From an uncultured Bacillota bacterium (GTDB taxonomy: Bacteria; Bacillota; Clostridia; Oscillospirales; Oscillospiraceae), in the NCBI GenBank assembly GCA_947649625.1, contig CANSSJ010000015.1, positions 1-39,227 of the forward strand: a stretch of DNA of 39,227 nucleotides. The letters are read 5' to 3'. Both the position numbers and the translations under genes were made by a program. The notes under the pieces are model-generated. The model did not search any database. It saw only the letters and a list, made by a program, of their open reading frames with translations, and had not been told where the DNA came from. Positions 8,948 through 16,081 of the stretch are shown piece after piece (position 1 is the first letter of the stretch; each line of letters starts with the position of its first letter).

Positions 8948-10240
8948 ATGGTAAAAGCGATCGTAGGCGCCAACTGGGGCGACGAGGGCAAGGGCAAGAT
9001 CACCGACATGCTGGCCCGGCAGTCCGATGTGGTCGTCCGCTTCCAGGGGGGCGCCAATGCCGGCCACACCATCATCAACGATTACGGCCGGTTTGCCCTG
9101 CACACTCTCCCCTCAGGCGTGTTCTACCCCCACATCACCAACGTCATCGGCAACGGCGTGGCTCTGGACATCGCCAAGCTGGTCCAGGAGCTGGACAGCG
9201 TCACAGGCCAGGGGGTGCCCGCCCCCCGGGTGATCGTCTCCGACCGGACCCAGCTGCTCATGCCCTACCACATCCTCCAGGACACCTATGAGGAGGCCCG
9301 GCTGGGCGGGCGCGCCTTCGGCTCCACCAAGAGCGGCATCGCCCCCTTCTACTCCGACAAATACGCCAAGACGGGCATCCAGATGTGCGACCTCTTCGAC
9401 GAAAGCCGGCTCCGGGAGCGGCTCACCGCCGCCGTGGAACTGAAAAACGTGCTCTTTGAGCACCTGTACCACCAGCCCAAGGTGGACGCGGAGGAGCTTC
9501 TCTCCCAGCTTCTGGAGCTGCGGGAGCGGATCCGCCCCTATGTGGGGGACACGGTGTCCTTCCTCCACCAGGCGCTGGCCGAGGGCAAAACCATCCTGCT
9601 GGAGGGCCAGCTTGGTTCCATGAAGGACCCGGATCTGGGTATCTTCCCCATGACCACCTCCTCCCACACCCTGGCCGGCTACGGCTGTGTGGGGGCCAGC
9701 GTGCCCCCCACCTCCATTGAGGACGTGATCTGCGTCACCAAGGCCTACTCCTCCTGTGTGGGCTCCCAGACCGAGCCCTTTGTCAGCGAGGTCACCGGAG
9801 CTTCCGGGGACGAGCTGCGCCGCCGGGGCGGCGACCATGGGGAGTTCGGCGCCACCACAGGCCGGCCCCGCCGGGTAGGCTGGTTCGACACGGTGGCCAC
9901 CAGGTACGGCTGCACGGTCCAGGGGGCCACGCAAGTCGCCCTCACCTGCCTGGACGTGCTGGGTTATCTGGATGAGATCCCCGTCTGCACCGGCTACGAG
10001 ATCGACGGCCGGGTGACAGACGCTTTCCCCACCACTCCCGCCCTGCTCCGGGCAAAGCCGGTCTTTGAGACCCTCCCCGGCTGGAAGACCGACATCCGGG
10101 GCTGCACCGACTACGACGCACTCCCCGCCAACGCCAGGGCCTATGTGGACTTCCTGGAGGCCCATATCGGCGCGCCTATCACCATGGTGTCCACCGGCCC
10201 CAAGCGGGAGGAGATGGCATACCGCACCCCCAAGCTATAA
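8948..10240 (+). CDS. purA: Adenylosuccinate synthetase, clostridial-type
   Basis: PurA converts IMP, aspartate and GTP to adenylosuccinate in AMP synthesis. The 430-residue protein keeps the catalytic motifs: WGDEGKGK (D12), NAGHT (H40), GSTKSGIAPFYSDK (IMP site), EFGATTGRPRRVGWFD, and a C-terminal ITMVSTGPKREE. It belongs to a divergent branch that, to my knowledge, is the ordinary PurA in many Clostridia. Differences from the E. coli enzyme include GGANAGH for GGHNAGH, EGQLGS for EGAQGT, and TCLDVL for TKLDVL (Cys334 where a Lys contacts guanine). The ribosome site GGAGG is nine bases from the ATG. It is followed by a GC-rich hairpin and then a protease gene in the same direction. Confidence 0.95.
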   Translation: MVKAIVGANWGDEGKGKITDMLARQSDVVVRFQGGANAGHTIINDYGRFALHTLPSGVFYPHITNVIGNGVALDIAKLVQELDSVTGQGVPAPRVIVSDRTQLLMPYHILQDTYEEARLGGRAFGSTKSGIAPFYSDKYAKTGIQMCDLFDESRLRERLTAAVELKNVLFEHLYHQPKVDAEELLSQLLELRERIRPYVGDTVSFLHQALAEGKTILLEGQLGSMKDPDLGIFPMTTSSHTLAGYGCVGASVPPTSIEDVICVTKAYSSCVGSQTEPFVSEVTGASGDELRRRGGDHGEFGATTGRPRRVGWFDTVATRYGCTVQGATQVALTCLDVLGYLDEIPVCTGYEIDGRVTDAFPTTPALLRAKPVFETLPGWKTDIRGCTDYDALPANARAYVDFLEAHIGAPITMVSTGPKREEMAYRTPKL

Positions 10241-10246
10241 CTTCAC

Positions 10247-10276
10247 CACGCCGGGCGCGGACAAGCGCCCGGCGTG
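10247..10276 (+). terminator. GC-rich hairpin after purA (no T tract)
   Basis: A perfect 12-bp stem (10247-10258 with 10265-10276) encloses a six-base loop. It lacks a following T run, so it may be a 3'-end stabiliser or a leaky terminator before the protease gene. Confidence 0.45.
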
Positions 10277-10316
10277 TGGAGCATATGTAAGCCCCATCAA
10301 CGCAAAGGAGAAAACC

Positions 10317-12179
10317 ATGAAAAAACTGCTTTCCTCACTGCTGGCCCTGACGCTGGGCCTGTCTCTGGCCATCCTTCCCGCCTCTGCGCTGGAGCTGGAC
10401 GAGGCCCGGGAGCTGCTGGCCGTCTATTACGTGGACGGCGTCCCTCCAAAGGTGCTGGAGCTGGACTCTCTGGACGCCATTCTGGAGGCCATCGGCGACC
10501 CCTATACCTTTTACATGACCCCCGAGCAGTACGACGCCTTCAACAAGTCGGTCAACGGTCAGACCGTAGTGGGCATCGGCGCCACGGTGGAGACCGCCTA
10601 TGACGGCGGCTACCGGATCATGTCCGTCCTGCCCGACTCCCCCGCCCTGGAGGCGGGCATCCAGCCCGGCGATATCCTCACGGCGGTGGACGGCGTGCCC
10701 ATGTCCCCCGAGGTGGACCCCCGCATCCCCGTGACCGGACAGGAGGGCACCAGCCTGACCCTCACCATCAATCGCAACGGTCAGACGCTGGAGTTTACAC
10801 TCACCCGCCGGGCGGTGCCCATCCCCATCGTCACCCATGAGCAGCGGGGCTCCGCCGGCTATATCGACTGTATCAGCTTCGGCACCACCACCGCCCGATC
10901 CATCCAGGAGGCCATCCAGGAGCTGGACGACCACACCGCCGTCTGGATCGTGGACCTGCGGGCCAACCCCGGCGGAGACAGCGGCTCCACCGCCGCCAGC
11001 GCCAGCCTCTTTACCGGCGGCGGCACCATGCTCTACTTCCGGGACGGCTCCGGGAGCTATAATTACACCTACACCCTGCCCACCTTCCCCGACATGACGG
11101 ACAAGCCGGTGATCGTCCTCACCAGTGAGCACTCTGCCAGCGGCTCGGAGCTCTTCGCCGGGGATATCCGCACCTACACCGCCGGTATCGCCCTGGGCCA
11201 GCGCACCTTCGGCAAGGGCATCGCCCAGATCGTGCTGGACGAACGCAACTGCCCGTATATGGAGGGCGGCGAGGCCATGAAGATCACCGCCTACCGCTTT
11301 TTCGCCCCCGACGGGGCCACCAACCATATCACCGGCGTACTGCCCACTTTGCTTATTTCCCCGGAGAATACCGAGGCGGCGGCCATGCTCCTGTCTCAAC
11401 CCGAGCCCCAGCGGCTCGACGGCTATTGGAAGCTGGTGCTGGCCGGACAGACCTTCTACCTCAAAGCCTCCGACGCCCGGACAGAGGAATATAAGGCCGC
11501 CTTCACCGAACTGCTGGAGGCGCTGCCCCTGTCCGCCGCCCTGTACAAGGGCTCCGGATTTGCCACATGGACCCTCCTCTCCCCCGAGCAGGCGGCCAGG
11601 GAGCTGGGCCTGAGCTTCAAGCCCCGCACCTTCACCGACACAGAGAACAGCGAGTTTGCCCGGGAGATCGACACCCTGGCCACCTACCGCATCCTGAAGG
11701 GCTTCGGCGACAAGACCTTCCGCCCCGGCGAGACCGTCACCCGGGCTCAGTTCTGCTCCATGGTGGCCTCCGCCCTGGACCTGCCTGACGGAAAGGCCTC
11801 CAAATTCTCCGACGTGAAGGAGGGCGCCTGGTACGCCGGCGCGGTGAACGCCATGGCGGATATGGGCTTTGTCTCGGGCCGCGGCGGCGGGACCTTCTGC
11901 CCCGGGCAGACCATCACCTGCCAGGAGATGGTCTCCATCCTCTCCCGGGTGGCCGCCTGGATCAGCATGGACGGCTACGACCTGGACGGACAGCTCCTCA
12001 TGCCCGAGGAAGTGGAGAAGTACTCCGATTACGCCTCCTGGGCTCAGGCAGCTGCCCGAAACCTGGACGAGCTGGGCGCTCTGGCCGGCGACCTGGCTCC
12101 CACCGACTCCGGCACCCGTGAGGTGGCTGCCGCCATGCTCTGCCGGCTGATGGAACGCACCCATTTGATTTGGGATTAA
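10317..12179 (+). CDS. Secreted S41 (CtpA-type) protease with PDZ and SLH domains
   Basis: The 620-residue protein starts with a signal peptide (MKKLLSSLLALTLGLSLAIL, cut near ASA). A PDZ domain follows at about 82-165 (ALEAGIQPGDILTAVDG), then the S41 protease core: YIDCISF, VDLRANPGG, SEHSASGSELFAG with the nucleophilic Ser in SASGSE (273-278), and the catalytic Lys300 in TFGKG. Residues from about 435 form two clear and one weaker S-layer homology repeat (ILKGFGDKTFRPGETVTRAQF; FVSGRGGGTFCPGQTITCQEM), which would hold it on secondary cell-wall polymers. The ATG at 10317 follows AAAGGAG. It probably trims or degrades exported proteins at the cell surface; the target is unknown. Confidence 0.9.
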   Translation: MKKLLSSLLALTLGLSLAILPASALELDEARELLAVYYVDGVPPKVLELDSLDAILEAIGDPYTFYMTPEQYDAFNKSVNGQTVVGIGATVETAYDGGYRIMSVLPDSPALEAGIQPGDILTAVDGVPMSPEVDPRIPVTGQEGTSLTLTINRNGQTLEFTLTRRAVPIPIVTHEQRGSAGYIDCISFGTTTARSIQEAIQELDDHTAVWIVDLRANPGGDSGSTAASASLFTGGGTMLYFRDGSGSYNYTYTLPTFPDMTDKPVIVLTSEHSASGSELFAGDIRTYTAGIALGQRTFGKGIAQIVLDERNCPYMEGGEAMKITAYRFFAPDGATNHITGVLPTLLISPENTEAAAMLLSQPEPQRLDGYWKLVLAGQTFYLKASDARTEEYKAAFTELLEALPLSAALYKGSGFATWTLLSPEQAARELGLSFKPRTFTDTENSEFAREIDTLATYRILKGFGDKTFRPGETVTRAQFCSMVASALDLPDGKASKFSDVKEGAWYAGAVNAMADMGFVSGRGGGTFCPGQTITCQEMVSILSRVAAWISMDGYDLDGQLLMPEEVEKYSDYASWAQAAARNLDELGALAGDLAPTDSGTREVAAAMLCRLMERTHLIWD

Positions 12180-12201
12180 ATATGGAAAGGACCTGACAAA
12201 A

Positions 12202-13293
12202 TTGACCAAGATCGACATTATCTCCGGCTTTTTAGGGGCCGGCAAGACCACTCTAATCAAGAAGCTGCTGGACGAGAGCTTCAAGGGGGAGAAAATCGTC
12301 CTCATCGAGAATGAGTTCGGCGAGATCGGCATTGACGGCGGCTTTTTGAAGGACGCCGGGGTGGAGATCACTGAGATGAACTCGGGCTGTATCTGCTGCT
12401 CTCTGGTGGGCGACTTCGGCGCGGCCCTGAAGCAGGTGCTGGCCGGCTACGCCCCCGCCCGCATCGTCATCGAGCCCTCCGGCGTGGGCAAGCTGTCCGA
12501 CGTGGTGGCCGCGGTGGAGCGGGTCCAGGCCGAAGCCCCTGACCTGCACCTGAACAGCTTCGTCACCGTGGTGGACGCCGCCAAGGCCAAGGTGTATATG
12601 AAGAACTTCGGCGAGTTCTTCAACGACCAGGTGGAGCACGCCTGCGCCATCATCCTGTCCCGCACCCAGAAGATCGACCAGCACAAGCTGGACGGGGCGG
12701 TGACCCTCCTGCGGGAGAAAAATCCCAAGGCGGCCATCCTTACCACCCCCTGGGACCAGCTCACCGGGGCACAGATCCTCTCTGCCATGGAGGGCGGCCG
12801 CGACCTGGCCCACGAGCTGATGGAGGAGATCGAGCACGAGGACCACCACCATCATCACCACGACCACGACCACGAGCATGACCATGAACACGATCACGAA
12901 CACCACCACCACGACCATGAGCATGACCATGAGCATGAGCACCATCATGAGCATGGCGACACCTGCACCGCCTGCTGCGGCCACGACCACTATCACCACG
13001 ACCACGACGCCGACGAGGTGTTCACCTCCTGGGGCCGGGAGACTCCCCGGAAGTACAGCCGGGAGGAGCTCCAGGAGGCCCTGGCCTCCCTGGCTATGAC
13101 CGAGGACTATGGAATCATCCTCCGGGCCAAGGGGATGGTCCCCTGCGAGGACGGAACTTCCTGGCTCCACTTCGACCTGACCCCCGAGGAGTTTGAGATC
13201 CGGGAGGGCTCCGCCGACTATACCGGCCGTCTGTGCGTCATCGGCTCCGAGCTGAAAGAGGACCAGCTGGAAAAGCTGTTTTTGCTGGCATAA
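12202..13293 (+). CDS. COG0523 GTPase (metal chaperone) with His-rich segment
   Basis: COG0523/CobW-family GTPases deliver metals, most often zinc, to client proteins. The 363-residue product has Walker A GFLGAGKTT (9-17), ENEFGEIGID, and the diagnostic metal motif GCICC (C63, C65, C66). A CobW C-terminal domain occupies the last 80 residues. Between them, at about residues 208-272, lies a stretch with roughly 30 histidines alternating with Asp/Glu, plus a CTACCG motif: a likely metal store or sensor. The start is a TTG at 12202 behind AAAGG; no ATG fits the conserved N-terminus. It lies 22 bases after the S41 protease gene. The next gene is a divergent paralogue. Which metal it handles cannot be read from the sequence. 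Confidence 0.92.
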   Translation: MTKIDIISGFLGAGKTTLIKKLLDESFKGEKIVLIENEFGEIGIDGGFLKDAGVEITEMNSGCICCSLVGDFGAALKQVLAGYAPARIVIEPSGVGKLSDVVAAVERVQAEAPDLHLNSFVTVVDAAKAKVYMKNFGEFFNDQVEHACAIILSRTQKIDQHKLDGAVTLLREKNPKAAILTTPWDQLTGAQILSAMEGGRDLAHELMEEIEHEDHHHHHHDHDHEHDHEHDHEHHHHDHEHDHEHEHHHEHGDTCTACCGHDHYHHDHDADEVFTSWGRETPRKYSREELQEALASLAMTEDYGIILRAKGMVPCEDGTSWLHFDLTPEEFEIREGSADYTGRLCVIGSELKEDQLEKLFLLA

Positions 13294-13307
13294 AACCGGA
13301 TGCACTG

Positions 13308-13357
13308 TGTAGGGGCGGACATTGTCCGCCCGCGGGCGCGCACTGCGCGCCCCTACA
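13308..13357. repeat. Double-hairpin intergenic repeat, complete copy
   Basis: Two adjacent perfect 8-bp hairpins with 3-base loops (13313-13331 and 13334-13352) are closed by TGTAGG (13308-13313) and CCTACA (13352-13357). The whole 50-base element is therefore almost a cruciform. Related copies occur at 29534-29561 and 35207-35275. It fills most of the gap between the two COG0523 genes. Confidence 0.75.
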
Positions 13358-13383
13358 AAATATCCCCCCAGAGGTGAAATAAC

Positions 13384-14331
13384 ATGCCCGATTCACGAAT
13401 TCCCCTCTATTTAATCACCGGCTTTCTGGACGCCGGCAAGACCACGCTGCTGTCCGACACGCTGAATATGGACTACTTCAACGACGGCCAGCGCACGGTG
13501 CTCCTCCTGTGCGAGGACGGCGAGGAGGAGTACGACCAGGAGTTTCTCTCCAAACGCAACTGCCGCCTGATCCCCGTGGAGGACCAGGAGCAGTTGACCA
13601 CCGAGTTTTTGAAAGAGATCGACCGCCGCTACCAGCCCGAGCGGGTGCTGCTGGAGTACAACGGCATGTGGCCCGGCCAGCTGCTGGTAAACCTGCGGCT
13701 GCCCCGGAACTGGGGGCTGTATCAGGCCATCCATGTGGTGGACGGTTCCACCTTTGAGATGTATCTGAAAAACATGCAGTCCATGTTCATCGACATGGTG
13801 TCCAACGCGGACATGGTGCTGTTCAACCGCTGCACCCCCGACATGCCCCTGTCCGGCTGGAAGCGGTCAGTGCGGGCGGTGAACCGGATGTGCGAGATCG
13901 TCTTTGAGGACGTCATGGGCGAGGAGCTGGAAGTGGAGGACATCCTCCCCTACTCTCTGGATGAATCCCATATCGACCTGGAGGACGCCGACTACGGCAT
14001 CTGGTATCTGGACATCCAGGAGCACCCCGACCGCTATGTGGGCAAGACCATCACCTACAAGGCCCAGGCCATGACCGGCGCGAAGTTGCCCAAGGGGTCC
14101 TTTGTCCCGGGGCGCAACGCCATGACCTGCTGCGTGGAGGACATCCGCTTCTTCGGTTTCCTGTGTAAGTACGACAGGACCCGCTCCCTGAAAAAGGGGG
14201 AGTGGATCACCGTCACCGCCGAGATCAGGTGGGAGCACGCCGACGTCTATGAAGACGAGGGCGTGGTGCTCTACGCCCGGAGCGTGGAGAAGGCGGCCCC
14301 CCCCGACGACCCGCTGGTATACTTCCGATAA
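13384..14331 (+). CDS. Divergent COG0523-like GTPase fused to a YcgQ/TIGR03943-like domain
   Basis: The 315-residue protein begins like a CobW/COG0523 GTPase: IPLYLITGFLDAGKTTLL (Walker A 13-21), YQPERVLLEYNGMWP in place of the usual E.SG motif, and AIHVVDGSTF. The diagnostic CxCC motif is missing and the NKxD base-recognition motif reads FNRCT, so GTP use is uncertain. From about residue 205 it changes character. YVGKTITYKAQAM, GSFVPGRNAMTCCVEDIRFFGFL (CC at 249-250), GEWITVTAEI and VLYARSVEKA resemble the C-terminal domain of YcgQ (TIGR03943/DUF1980), a putative metal-related permease partner. The fusion suggests coupling of a chaperone-like GTPase to a permease-type module, but no permease gene is nearby. 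The ribosome site is AGAGGTG. Confidence 0.75.
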   Translation: MPDSRIPLYLITGFLDAGKTTLLSDTLNMDYFNDGQRTVLLLCEDGEEEYDQEFLSKRNCRLIPVEDQEQLTTEFLKEIDRRYQPERVLLEYNGMWPGQLLVNLRLPRNWGLYQAIHVVDGSTFEMYLKNMQSMFIDMVSNADMVLFNRCTPDMPLSGWKRSVRAVNRMCEIVFEDVMGEELEVEDILPYSLDESHIDLEDADYGIWYLDIQEHPDRYVGKTITYKAQAMTGAKLPKGSFVPGRNAMTCCVEDIRFFGFLCKYDRTRSLKKGEWITVTAEIRWEHADVYEDEGVVLYARSVEKAAPPDDPLVYFR

Positions 14332-14334
14332 GAC

Positions 14335-14370
14335 AAAAATTGACGGCCCCCGTGGGGGCCGTCAATTTTT
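14335..14370. terminator. Strong bidirectional terminator
   Basis: A perfect 16-bp stem (14335-14350 with 14355-14370) begins with A5 and ends with T5. It serves both the COG0523-like gene and the convergent glnS. Confidence 0.9.
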
Positions 14371-14377
14371 ATCTCAC

Positions 14378-16081
<1,704 letters not shown>

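What the first reader, a model, noticed from the sequence alone, without database searches (positions are those of the whole stretch)
13384..14331. COG0523-like GTPase fused to a YcgQ-like domain, with metal and base-recognition motifs lost
The N-terminal 200 residues read as a CobW/COG0523 GTPase with an intact Walker A. CxCC is missing and NKxD reads FNRCT. The C-terminal 110 residues resemble the YcgQ/TIGR03943 domain, including a CC pair at 249-250. YcgQ normally pairs with a permease, and COG0523 proteins are metal chaperones, so a single-chain fusion beside a canonical COG0523 gene suggests a two-component metal-transfer module. The domain call by eye is inference.
Basis: partly seen in the sequence, partly recalled or inferred. 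Interest (0 to 1): 0.7.

Follow-up and report, generated by a model that had tools for sequence, protein, structure and literature searches.

The report
Soluble fusion from a transporter operon
A gut bacterium carries a soluble two-part protein that looks like a transport machine whose membrane parts were lost, leaving its switch domain joined straight to a cysteine-bearing domain, and in most relatives examined its gene stands next to that of a histidine-rich metal-chaperone-like protein.

Summary
ORF 13384-14331 joins a CobW-like G domain (PF02492, E 7.5e-12) to a DUF1980 C-terminal domain (PF21537, E 4.8e-23). Walker A is intact, CxCC absent, G4 reads NRCT, the DUF1980 CC pair is present. 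In the window's own family, 63 of 68 other genomes whose DUF1980_C loci I looked at carry this fusion. In the 60 loci fetched as one set, 59 are fusions and 58 of them have a COG0523 gene adjacent.

Trees of both halves place the fusion, as one origin, with the same ten of these operons. The simplest history is loss of about 1.4 kb that removed the permease and the DUF1980 membrane segments. Partner COG0523 proteins hold more histidine in the fusion state (median 39 against 6.5).

Most likely function: a cytosolic, nucleotide-switched metal (probably zinc) hand-off pair. The lineage is well supported; metal, nucleotide and direction are inferred, and no convincing Zur box was found for the fusion type. 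New variant of a known kind.

The parts
12202..13293 (+). Partner gene: COG0523/CobW protein (cobW + CobW_C domains), CICC motif, His-rich linker, G4 = SRTQ
   Evidence: Pfam cobW E 9.3e-37, CobW_C E 1.8e-7; PDB match YjiA 1nij E 9.9e-19; CICC in 160 of 162 aligned rows, gaps in the other 2
12388..12399 (+). CICC motif of the partner (residues 63-66)
   Evidence: sequence; aligned with the GCICCS stretch of YjiA
12835..13008 (+). His/Asp/Glu-rich linker of the partner (residues 212-269)
   Evidence: sequence; partner His count median 39 in 143 fusion-type rows against 6.5 in 32 permease-type rows, both with loci held twice (18 distinct in the second)
13384..14331 (+). Fusion gene: CxCC-less CobW-like G domain + DUF1980 C-terminal domain
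   Evidence: 590 related stretches in a capped public-genome scan, best 80 kept, 79 of them full-length fusions
13402..13833 (+). CobW-like G domain (Pfam residues 7-150; fold match to about residue 186)
13420..13443 (+). P-loop (Walker A) GFLDAGKT, residues 13-20
   Evidence: G13, G18, K19 in 80 of 80, T20 in 79 of 80
13510..13521 (+). Switch-I motif C43-E44-D45-G46, where the canonical partner reads N-E-F-G
   Evidence: C43 79 of 80, E44 and G46 80 of 80; alignment with canonical partners
13654..13665 (+). Walker-B motif E91-Y-N-G94 (ExNG, usual in the CxCC-less group; partners read EPSG or EPTG)
   Evidence: exceptions L146 and L148
13825..13833 (+). Altered G4 motif N148-R149-C150 (NKxD position)
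   Evidence: N 78, R 78, C 77 of 80; the next position is T in 58 and D in 8
13939..14322 (+). DUF1980 C-terminal domain, residues 186-313, OB-like fold
14128..14142 (+). CC-x-x-D motif (C249, C250, D253), shared with membrane-bound DUF1980 proteins
   Evidence: fusion sample 28 of 28 for all three; non-fusion 37, 41 and 40 of 41; of the four without the first Cys three have His and one Ala

Best explanation
The protein is the soluble remnant of a membrane transport complex. The ancestral operon encoded (1) a CxCC COG0523 chaperone, (2) a second, CxCC-less CobW-like G domain fused to the N-terminus of an ArsP_1-type permease, and (3) a three-TM protein carrying the DUF1980 C-terminal domain. 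In the lineage of the window the middle of gene 2 through the middle of gene 3 was lost (about 1.4 kb if one deletion), joining the G domain directly to the DUF1980_C domain. The product is a protein without membrane segments, kept with the COG0523 partner, which is now His-rich. Proposed mechanism (inferred): the His-rich linker and CICC of the partner gather metal, most likely Zn(II); the two paralogous P-loop domains pair in a nucleotide-dependent way, as HypB subunits or Ffh/FtsY do; the CCxxD site of the OB-like domain receives the metal or hands it on to a client protein. Shown: domain make-up, conserved pairing, one origin on the trees, kinship with the permease operons. Inferred: metal, nucleotide, direction, heterodimer, client.
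For: Fusion and fold. Pairing: 74 of 79 public loci; 58 of 59 fusions among 60 own-family loci, CxCC seen in 55 and the other 3 partners cut by a contig end, gap between -14 and +25 bp in 51 of 58 with first-in-frame starts; partner near 73 of 78 dereplicated fusions, and the next largest neighbour family near 12, leaving out two groups that look like antisense shadows of the partner. Ancestral operon: 22 permease-fused loci, all 22 with a DUF1980 gene directly downstream, 16 with the COG0523 gene directly upstream, 3 with it divergent, 3 without it in the stretch held; Pfam confirms cobW + ArsP_1 in one chain in the two scanned. Lineage: N-domain tree, fusions one group (94/98) among the permease-fused ones; C-domain tree, fusions one group (97/82*) among the membrane forms; the same ten operons (L190, L191, L193-L200) join the fusions in both (99/78 and 98/97*) and in the concatenated tree (96/89*, fusions 95/99*). 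Gene order in the operon equals domain order in the fusion. Metal: Cys replaced by His at C249 in three membrane forms fits a metal ligand; ZnuA, ABC-3/ABC or Fur genes at 5 membrane-form loci (L114, L116, L117, L127, L143); partner His gain.
Against: No convincing Zur-like box upstream of fusion-type operons, and the window genome's only ZnuA and Fur matches lie on other contigs. Neither G domain of the pair keeps the NKxD motif as a rule, so GTP use is doubtful. The positions of YjiA E37, C66 and C67 (the set changed in PDB entry 4ixn; zinc ligands by recall) hold no such residue in the fusion. By charge pattern the DUF1980_C domain of the membrane forms probably faces outward, so its role inside the cell need not be the old one. 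The OB-like fold match is weak and its top hits are nucleic-acid proteins. Fusion support in the N tree is just short of the starred level, and L200 is a long branch in all three trees. A stepwise history is not excluded.
Confidence: 0.55

Rival explanations
1. Regulatory subunit: the fusion is a nucleotide sensor that controls the partner COG0523 protein (or its client) and does not carry metal itself; the CC pair is structural or redox-active.
For: CxCC lost, G4 altered, Walker A and ExNG kept; close pairing with the COG0523 partner.
Against: The CCxxD motif is as conserved as the P-loop in the fusion and nearly so in membrane-form DUF1980 proteins, with Cys-to-His swaps.
Confidence: 0.2
2. 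Thiol/redox or other cofactor role: the vicinal cysteines form a disulfide or bind something other than a free metal ion (for example an arsenical, as ArsP-type permeases move by recall, or a cluster).
For: CC pair invariant; the ancestral permease is of the ArsP_1 family; an ArsR-family regulator lies beside one permease-DUF1980 locus (L130).
Against: COG0523 partner, His-rich linker and Znu/Fur neighbours point to a transition metal; the first Cys of the pair is His in three and Ala in one of 41 membrane forms, which does not fit an essential disulfide.
Confidence: 0.15
3. The fusion still works with a permease encoded elsewhere in the genome, so it is the cytosolic half of a split transporter.
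For: 17 of 61 fusion genomes have an ArsP_1 gene over the cut-off, on another contig or more than 10 kb away.
Against: 44 of 61 have none over the cut-off; the window genome, searched apart and 94.6% complete, has none. Other permease families were not searched.
Confidence: 0.07

Closest known systems
COG0523 / CobW metallochaperones (YjiA, ZigA/ZagA)
   Same: Same G3E P-loop fold and Pfam cobW match; Walker A intact. The partner P0002 is a COG0523 protein with CICC and CobW_C.
   Different: The fusion has no CxCC, no CobW_C match, ExNG in Walker B, NRC in G4, and a DUF1980 domain in place of CobW_C.
YcgQ / TIGR03943 / DUF1980 proteins (ScfB of group A Streptococcus), partners of YcgR/ScfA permeases
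   Same: Same C-terminal domain with R, CCxxD, G and W conserved. [quoted passage not shown]
   Different: No membrane segments, no adjacent permease, fused to a G domain.
HypB (NiFe-hydrogenase maturation) and Ffh/FtsY
   Same: Nearest solved folds of the G domain include HypB with zinc or nickel and the SRP GTPases; the HypB dimer is described in PMC9164220 (passages read).
   Different: HypB pairs with itself and Ffh with FtsY; pairing of the present two proteins is inferred only.
FeoB (G domain tethered to an iron permease; recalled)
   Same: The ancestral-type gene also joins an N-terminal G domain to a permease in one chain.
   Different: FeoB's G domain is of another GTPase class and its permease another family (recalled); the window protein has no permease part.

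Membership tests
COG0523 (as described in Haas et al. 2009, PMC2770081, passages read) | P-loop GTPase domain of the G3E type (Walker A, Glu in Walker B) | tested here: met
   cobW over cut-off, P-loop and E91 invariant, G3E folds nearest
COG0523 (as described in Haas et al. 2009, PMC2770081, passages read) | conserved CxCC metal motif | tested here: not met
   absent from the window protein and from the CxCC-less group aligned; so it is COG0523-like, not a COG0523 member by this definition
COG0523 (as described in Haas et al. 2009, PMC2770081, passages read) | intact NKxD motif of the G3E family | tested here: not met
   NRCT; C150 in 77 of 80
DUF1980_C (PF21537) | profile score over the curated cut-off | tested here: met
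   81.8 bits against 25.9
TIGR03943 / YcgQ permease subunit | whole-protein score over the curated cut-off, membrane N-terminal half | tested here: not met
   72.5 against 88.8 bits, positions 106-220 only; no hydrophobic segment in the window protein, none in 80 fusions at a stricter threshold
TIGR03943 / YcgQ permease subunit | adjacent ArsP_1/DUF318 permease | tested here: not met
   none in the window genome; none within 10 kb on the same contig in 61 fusion genomes
CobW C-terminal domain (PF07683) as alternative for residues 186-315 | profile match | tested here: not met
   no PF07683 match at E up to 1, although the partner matches it
CobW C-terminal domain (PF07683) as alternative for residues 186-315 | fold like that of a CobW C-terminal domain | tested here: inconclusive
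   the listed matches of the C-domain alone are OB-type domains, which does not exclude others
Zinc (Zur) regulon | Zur box upstream of the operon | tested here: inconclusive
   135 fusion-type stretches: TAATNATTA 1 against 1.2 in shuffles, CGTAATNATTACG with 3 mismatches 13 against 14.6; GATAATNATTATC with 3 mismatches 39 against 19.9, but 15 of the 39 lie inside the partner's coding start; the Zur box of these genera is not known to me
Metal-binding protein | metal bound by the CCxxD site | not testable with these tools
   needs purified protein

The most novel reading that the evidence does not exclude
A G-protein-gated metal transporter lost its whole membrane part in a single event and survived as a soluble two-protein metal relay, with a once outward-facing metal-capture domain now working in the cytosol and the partner chaperone's histidine-rich linker replacing transport by buffering; this form then became the commonest DUF1980 form in the window's family and is also found in Lachnospiraceae of the gut.
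Probability: 0.3. Interest if true: 0.78.

Novelty: new variant of a known kind. Interest (0 to 1): 0.6.

Why it matters
In the papers I saw, YcgQ/ScfB and YcgR/ScfA have no assigned biochemical function, although scfAB matters for infection in group A Streptococcus (PMC5584981, PMC12173739, passages), and many COG0523 clusters have no characterised member (PMC9164220, passages). The three states of one kind of G domain (alone, on the permease, on DUF1980_C) tie these orphans into one system and offer a soluble pair on which the mechanism of the membrane complex could be tested. It would also be an unusual case of a transporter turning into a soluble machine by loss of its membrane part.

Tried and rejected
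Operator upstream of the fusion operons: palindromes of 6-8 bp arms were more frequent than in shuffles of 135 fusion-type stretches, but with different sequences, many terminator-like; none was flagged in 26 permease-type stretches. Box scans: TAATNATTA 1 against 1.2 expected, CGTAATNATTACG up to 3 mismatches 13 against 14.6, GATAATNATTATC up to 2 mismatches 4 against 1.6 and up to 3 mismatches 39 against 19.9; 15 of those 39 lie in the coding start of the partner, leaving 24 of no shared sequence that I could see. De novo arms per G+C class gave nothing above 5 of 62. In permease-type stretches TAATNATTA was found in 10 of 26 against 1.7, but the 26 contain duplicates: 5 of 14 distinct, 3 of them near-identical sites of L162, L164, L165. 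Promoter-like sites in 9900-14600: 2 against 0.9 expected, both across the partner's start, not used.

Rfam: no match at gathering level in 9800-14700. PHROGs: no match for either protein.

In print: searches for COG0523 with DUF1980, COG3689 or COG0701, for TIGR03943, for DUF1980, for ycgQ+ycgR+zinc, and for CobW/permease/fusion/DUF318 listed no paper whose title or shown abstract describes this fusion or the CobW-permease fusion; only open-licence PMC text was searched, and listings, not whole papers, were seen. Papers opened, all as passages only: PMC5584981, PMC2770081, PMC10957091 (no 'permease' or 'CobW' found in it), PMC9164220, PMC12173739, PMC7029145. The scfAB search listed mostly unrelated papers.

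First survey with pruned ORFs showed 31 of 60 loci, because long antisense ORFs displaced genes; redone on all ORFs, which is the count used. In one search pruning likewise hid L140, L149 and L153, which one search recovered; L151 and L152 gave no hit to my profiles. The 60 own-family loci are not a random draw: I picked them from the 113 hits, mostly from genomes at least 90% complete, after G173 and G108 (both not fusions), G132, G033, G084, G013, G010 and G175 had been fetched; over all 68 genomes 63 have the fusion (G013 cut by a contig end), 2 the permease-fused type (G162, G173), 1 an unfused permease-DUF1980 pair (G108), 2 neither by my profiles. The His comparison is not an independent test: the fusion arose once on the trees, and rows include loci held twice. 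The trees use a sample: about every sixth of the 79 public fusions, those, and the window.

Full report

THE FAMILY. A capped public-genome scan gave 595 pattern matches, 590 of them related at tblastn E up to 1e-3; the best 80 were kept, with titles naming Firmicutes/Bacillota, Oscillospiraceae, Lachnospiraceae, their genera, or just 'bacterium'. In 80 full-length proteins (79 loci and the window) the P-loop, C43-E44-x-G46, ExNG, NRC and CCxxD are almost invariant. Of 200 genomes of the window's own family (Oscillospiraceae by the titles of its nearest named relatives) 113 have a DUF1980_C match. Of 60 of those loci fetched as one set 59 are window-type fusions and one (L261) is the permease-fused type. 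With eight genomes fetched earlier the tally is 63 of 68; the five others are told under Tried and rejected. In 299 genomes drawn from the phylum 31 have a match, 7 besides the window's own being window-type fusions (G329, G402, G424, G445, G466, G487, G496).

THE PAIR. In 74 of 79 public loci a COG0523 gene lies within 221 bp upstream on the same strand (two of the 74 are cut by a contig end); of the other five, L050 and L075 begin at a contig end, L072 has one 4.6 kb upstream, L035 and L052 show none. In the 60-locus set 58 of 59 fusions have it adjacent: CxCC is seen in 55, three partners are cut off; the gap is -14 to +25 bp in 51 of 58, taking the first start in frame, so small overlaps may depend on start choice. 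After dereplication at 75% identity the partner is near 73 of 78 fusions (63 upstream and 9 downstream on the same strand, 1 on the other); two other groups (38 and 37 loci) look like antisense shadows of it, and the next family is near 12. The window gap is 90 bp. In 162 aligned partner rows CICC is in 160 (2 gaps) and EPSG in 160; G4 reads LSRT-x in 131, with the aspartate kept in 13 rows of the listed types. So NKxD is usually missing on both sides of the pair. CooC, another P-loop metallochaperone, keeps only the first Asn of NKxD and binds adenine (PMC9164220, passages read), so ATP use is possible.

THE MEMBRANE COUNTERPART. In the 19 non-fusion genomes among the 80 searched for ArsP_1, 18 have an ArsP_1 permease next to the DUF1980 gene; the exception is G303. 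In 22 loci of 21 genomes (L117, L142, L182-L200, L261; 18 of the genomes come from 391 genomes of the class searched at E 1e-40) the permease has an N-terminal CobW-like domain of the CxCC-less, ExNG type. Pfam confirms both domains in the two chains scanned (L117, L142), my own profiles in the rest. All 22 have the DUF1980 gene directly downstream, 16 have the COG0523 gene directly upstream, 3 have it divergent (L196, L197, L199), 3 do not show it in the stretch held (L182, L192, L195). In two further genomes (L114, L115) a CxCC-less CobW-like domain is a separate gene of the permease-DUF1980 cluster. So one kind of G domain occurs alone, on the permease, and on DUF1980_C.

ONE ORIGIN BY LOSS OF THE MEMBRANE PART. 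In the N-domain tree (82 rows) the canonical proteins are split off (100/97*), and the fusions are one group (94/98) among the permease-fused ones if the root lies on the canonical side. In the C-domain tree (69 rows, few columns) the fusions are one group (97/82*) among the membrane forms. In both, the same ten operons (L190, L191, L193-L200) join the fusions (99/78 and 98/97*); the concatenated tree of 37 rows agrees (96/89*, fusions 95/99*). The nearest single operon is not settled: L190-194 in the C tree has weak support (80/37), and L200 is a long branch. Gene order equals domain order; in L190 the stretch between the two homologous parts is about 1.44 kb (my arithmetic). One deletion is the simplest reading; steps are not excluded.

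CONSEQUENCES. Fusion genomes mostly lack ArsP_1: 17 of 61 have one over the cut-off, none within 10 kb on the same contig, though most lie on other contigs whose distance is unknown; the window genome has none. The partner's histidines differ: median 39 (143 rows, range 12-73) against 6.5 (32 rows, 18 distinct, range 1-16); this is one evolutionary contrast, not many. Of 43 non-fusion DUF1980 proteins 37 show three hydrophobic segments; positive charge is densest in the second loop (0.27) and lowest after the third segment (0.09), and the inside-positive pattern for an inner N-terminus holds in 28 of 37. That predicts an outward DUF1980_C in the membrane form, while the fusion has no membrane segment. 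This is a crude method.

METAL. For zinc: ZnuA next to the permease in L114 and near it in L127; ABC-3, ABC ATPase and Fur genes beside the permease in L116 and L143; Fur beside the DUF1980 gene in L117, which also has a CbiM cobalt-uptake gene beyond the COG0523 gene. I scanned chosen neighbours of some loci only, so this is not a rate; the neighbours scanned at L121, L124, L126 and L130 gave no such family. Against: no convincing operator for the fusion type, and the window genome's single ZnuA and Fur matches are on other contigs. His in place of the first Cys of CCxxD in L118, L128 and L129 fits a metal ligand.

VERDICT. Function remains inferred.

Noticed in passing
L146:4480-5436, L148:4498-5430, L137:4662-5597: Second, divergent copies of the fusion without a COG0523 neighbour; in L146 and L148 the ExNG motif is altered and Pfam cobW no longer matches at E 0.001.
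   Followed up: partly
L126 (6875-7954 and 8336-9544): A permease-DUF1980 pair with two further CxCC COG0523 genes of another group nearby, one with NKSD and one with NKCD.
   Followed up: partly
window 10065-12179: S41 peptidase with PDZ and S-layer homology domains ends 22 bp before the COG0523 gene, so it may share its transcript; the true start is probably downstream of the listed one.
   Followed up: partly
G010, G175, G105, G110, G112: Short open frames (141-208 aa) with a DUF1980_C match in the window's family; the two fetched (L151, L152) gave no hit to my profiles.
   Followed up: no
L130:7325-7729: ArsR-family regulator beside a permease-DUF1980 pair, unlike the Fur/Znu neighbours of other loci.
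   Followed up: no
L139 (G496): Window-type fusion with partner in a genome of the same phylum but another class, grouping with L136 in the trees: possible lateral transfer.
   Followed up: no
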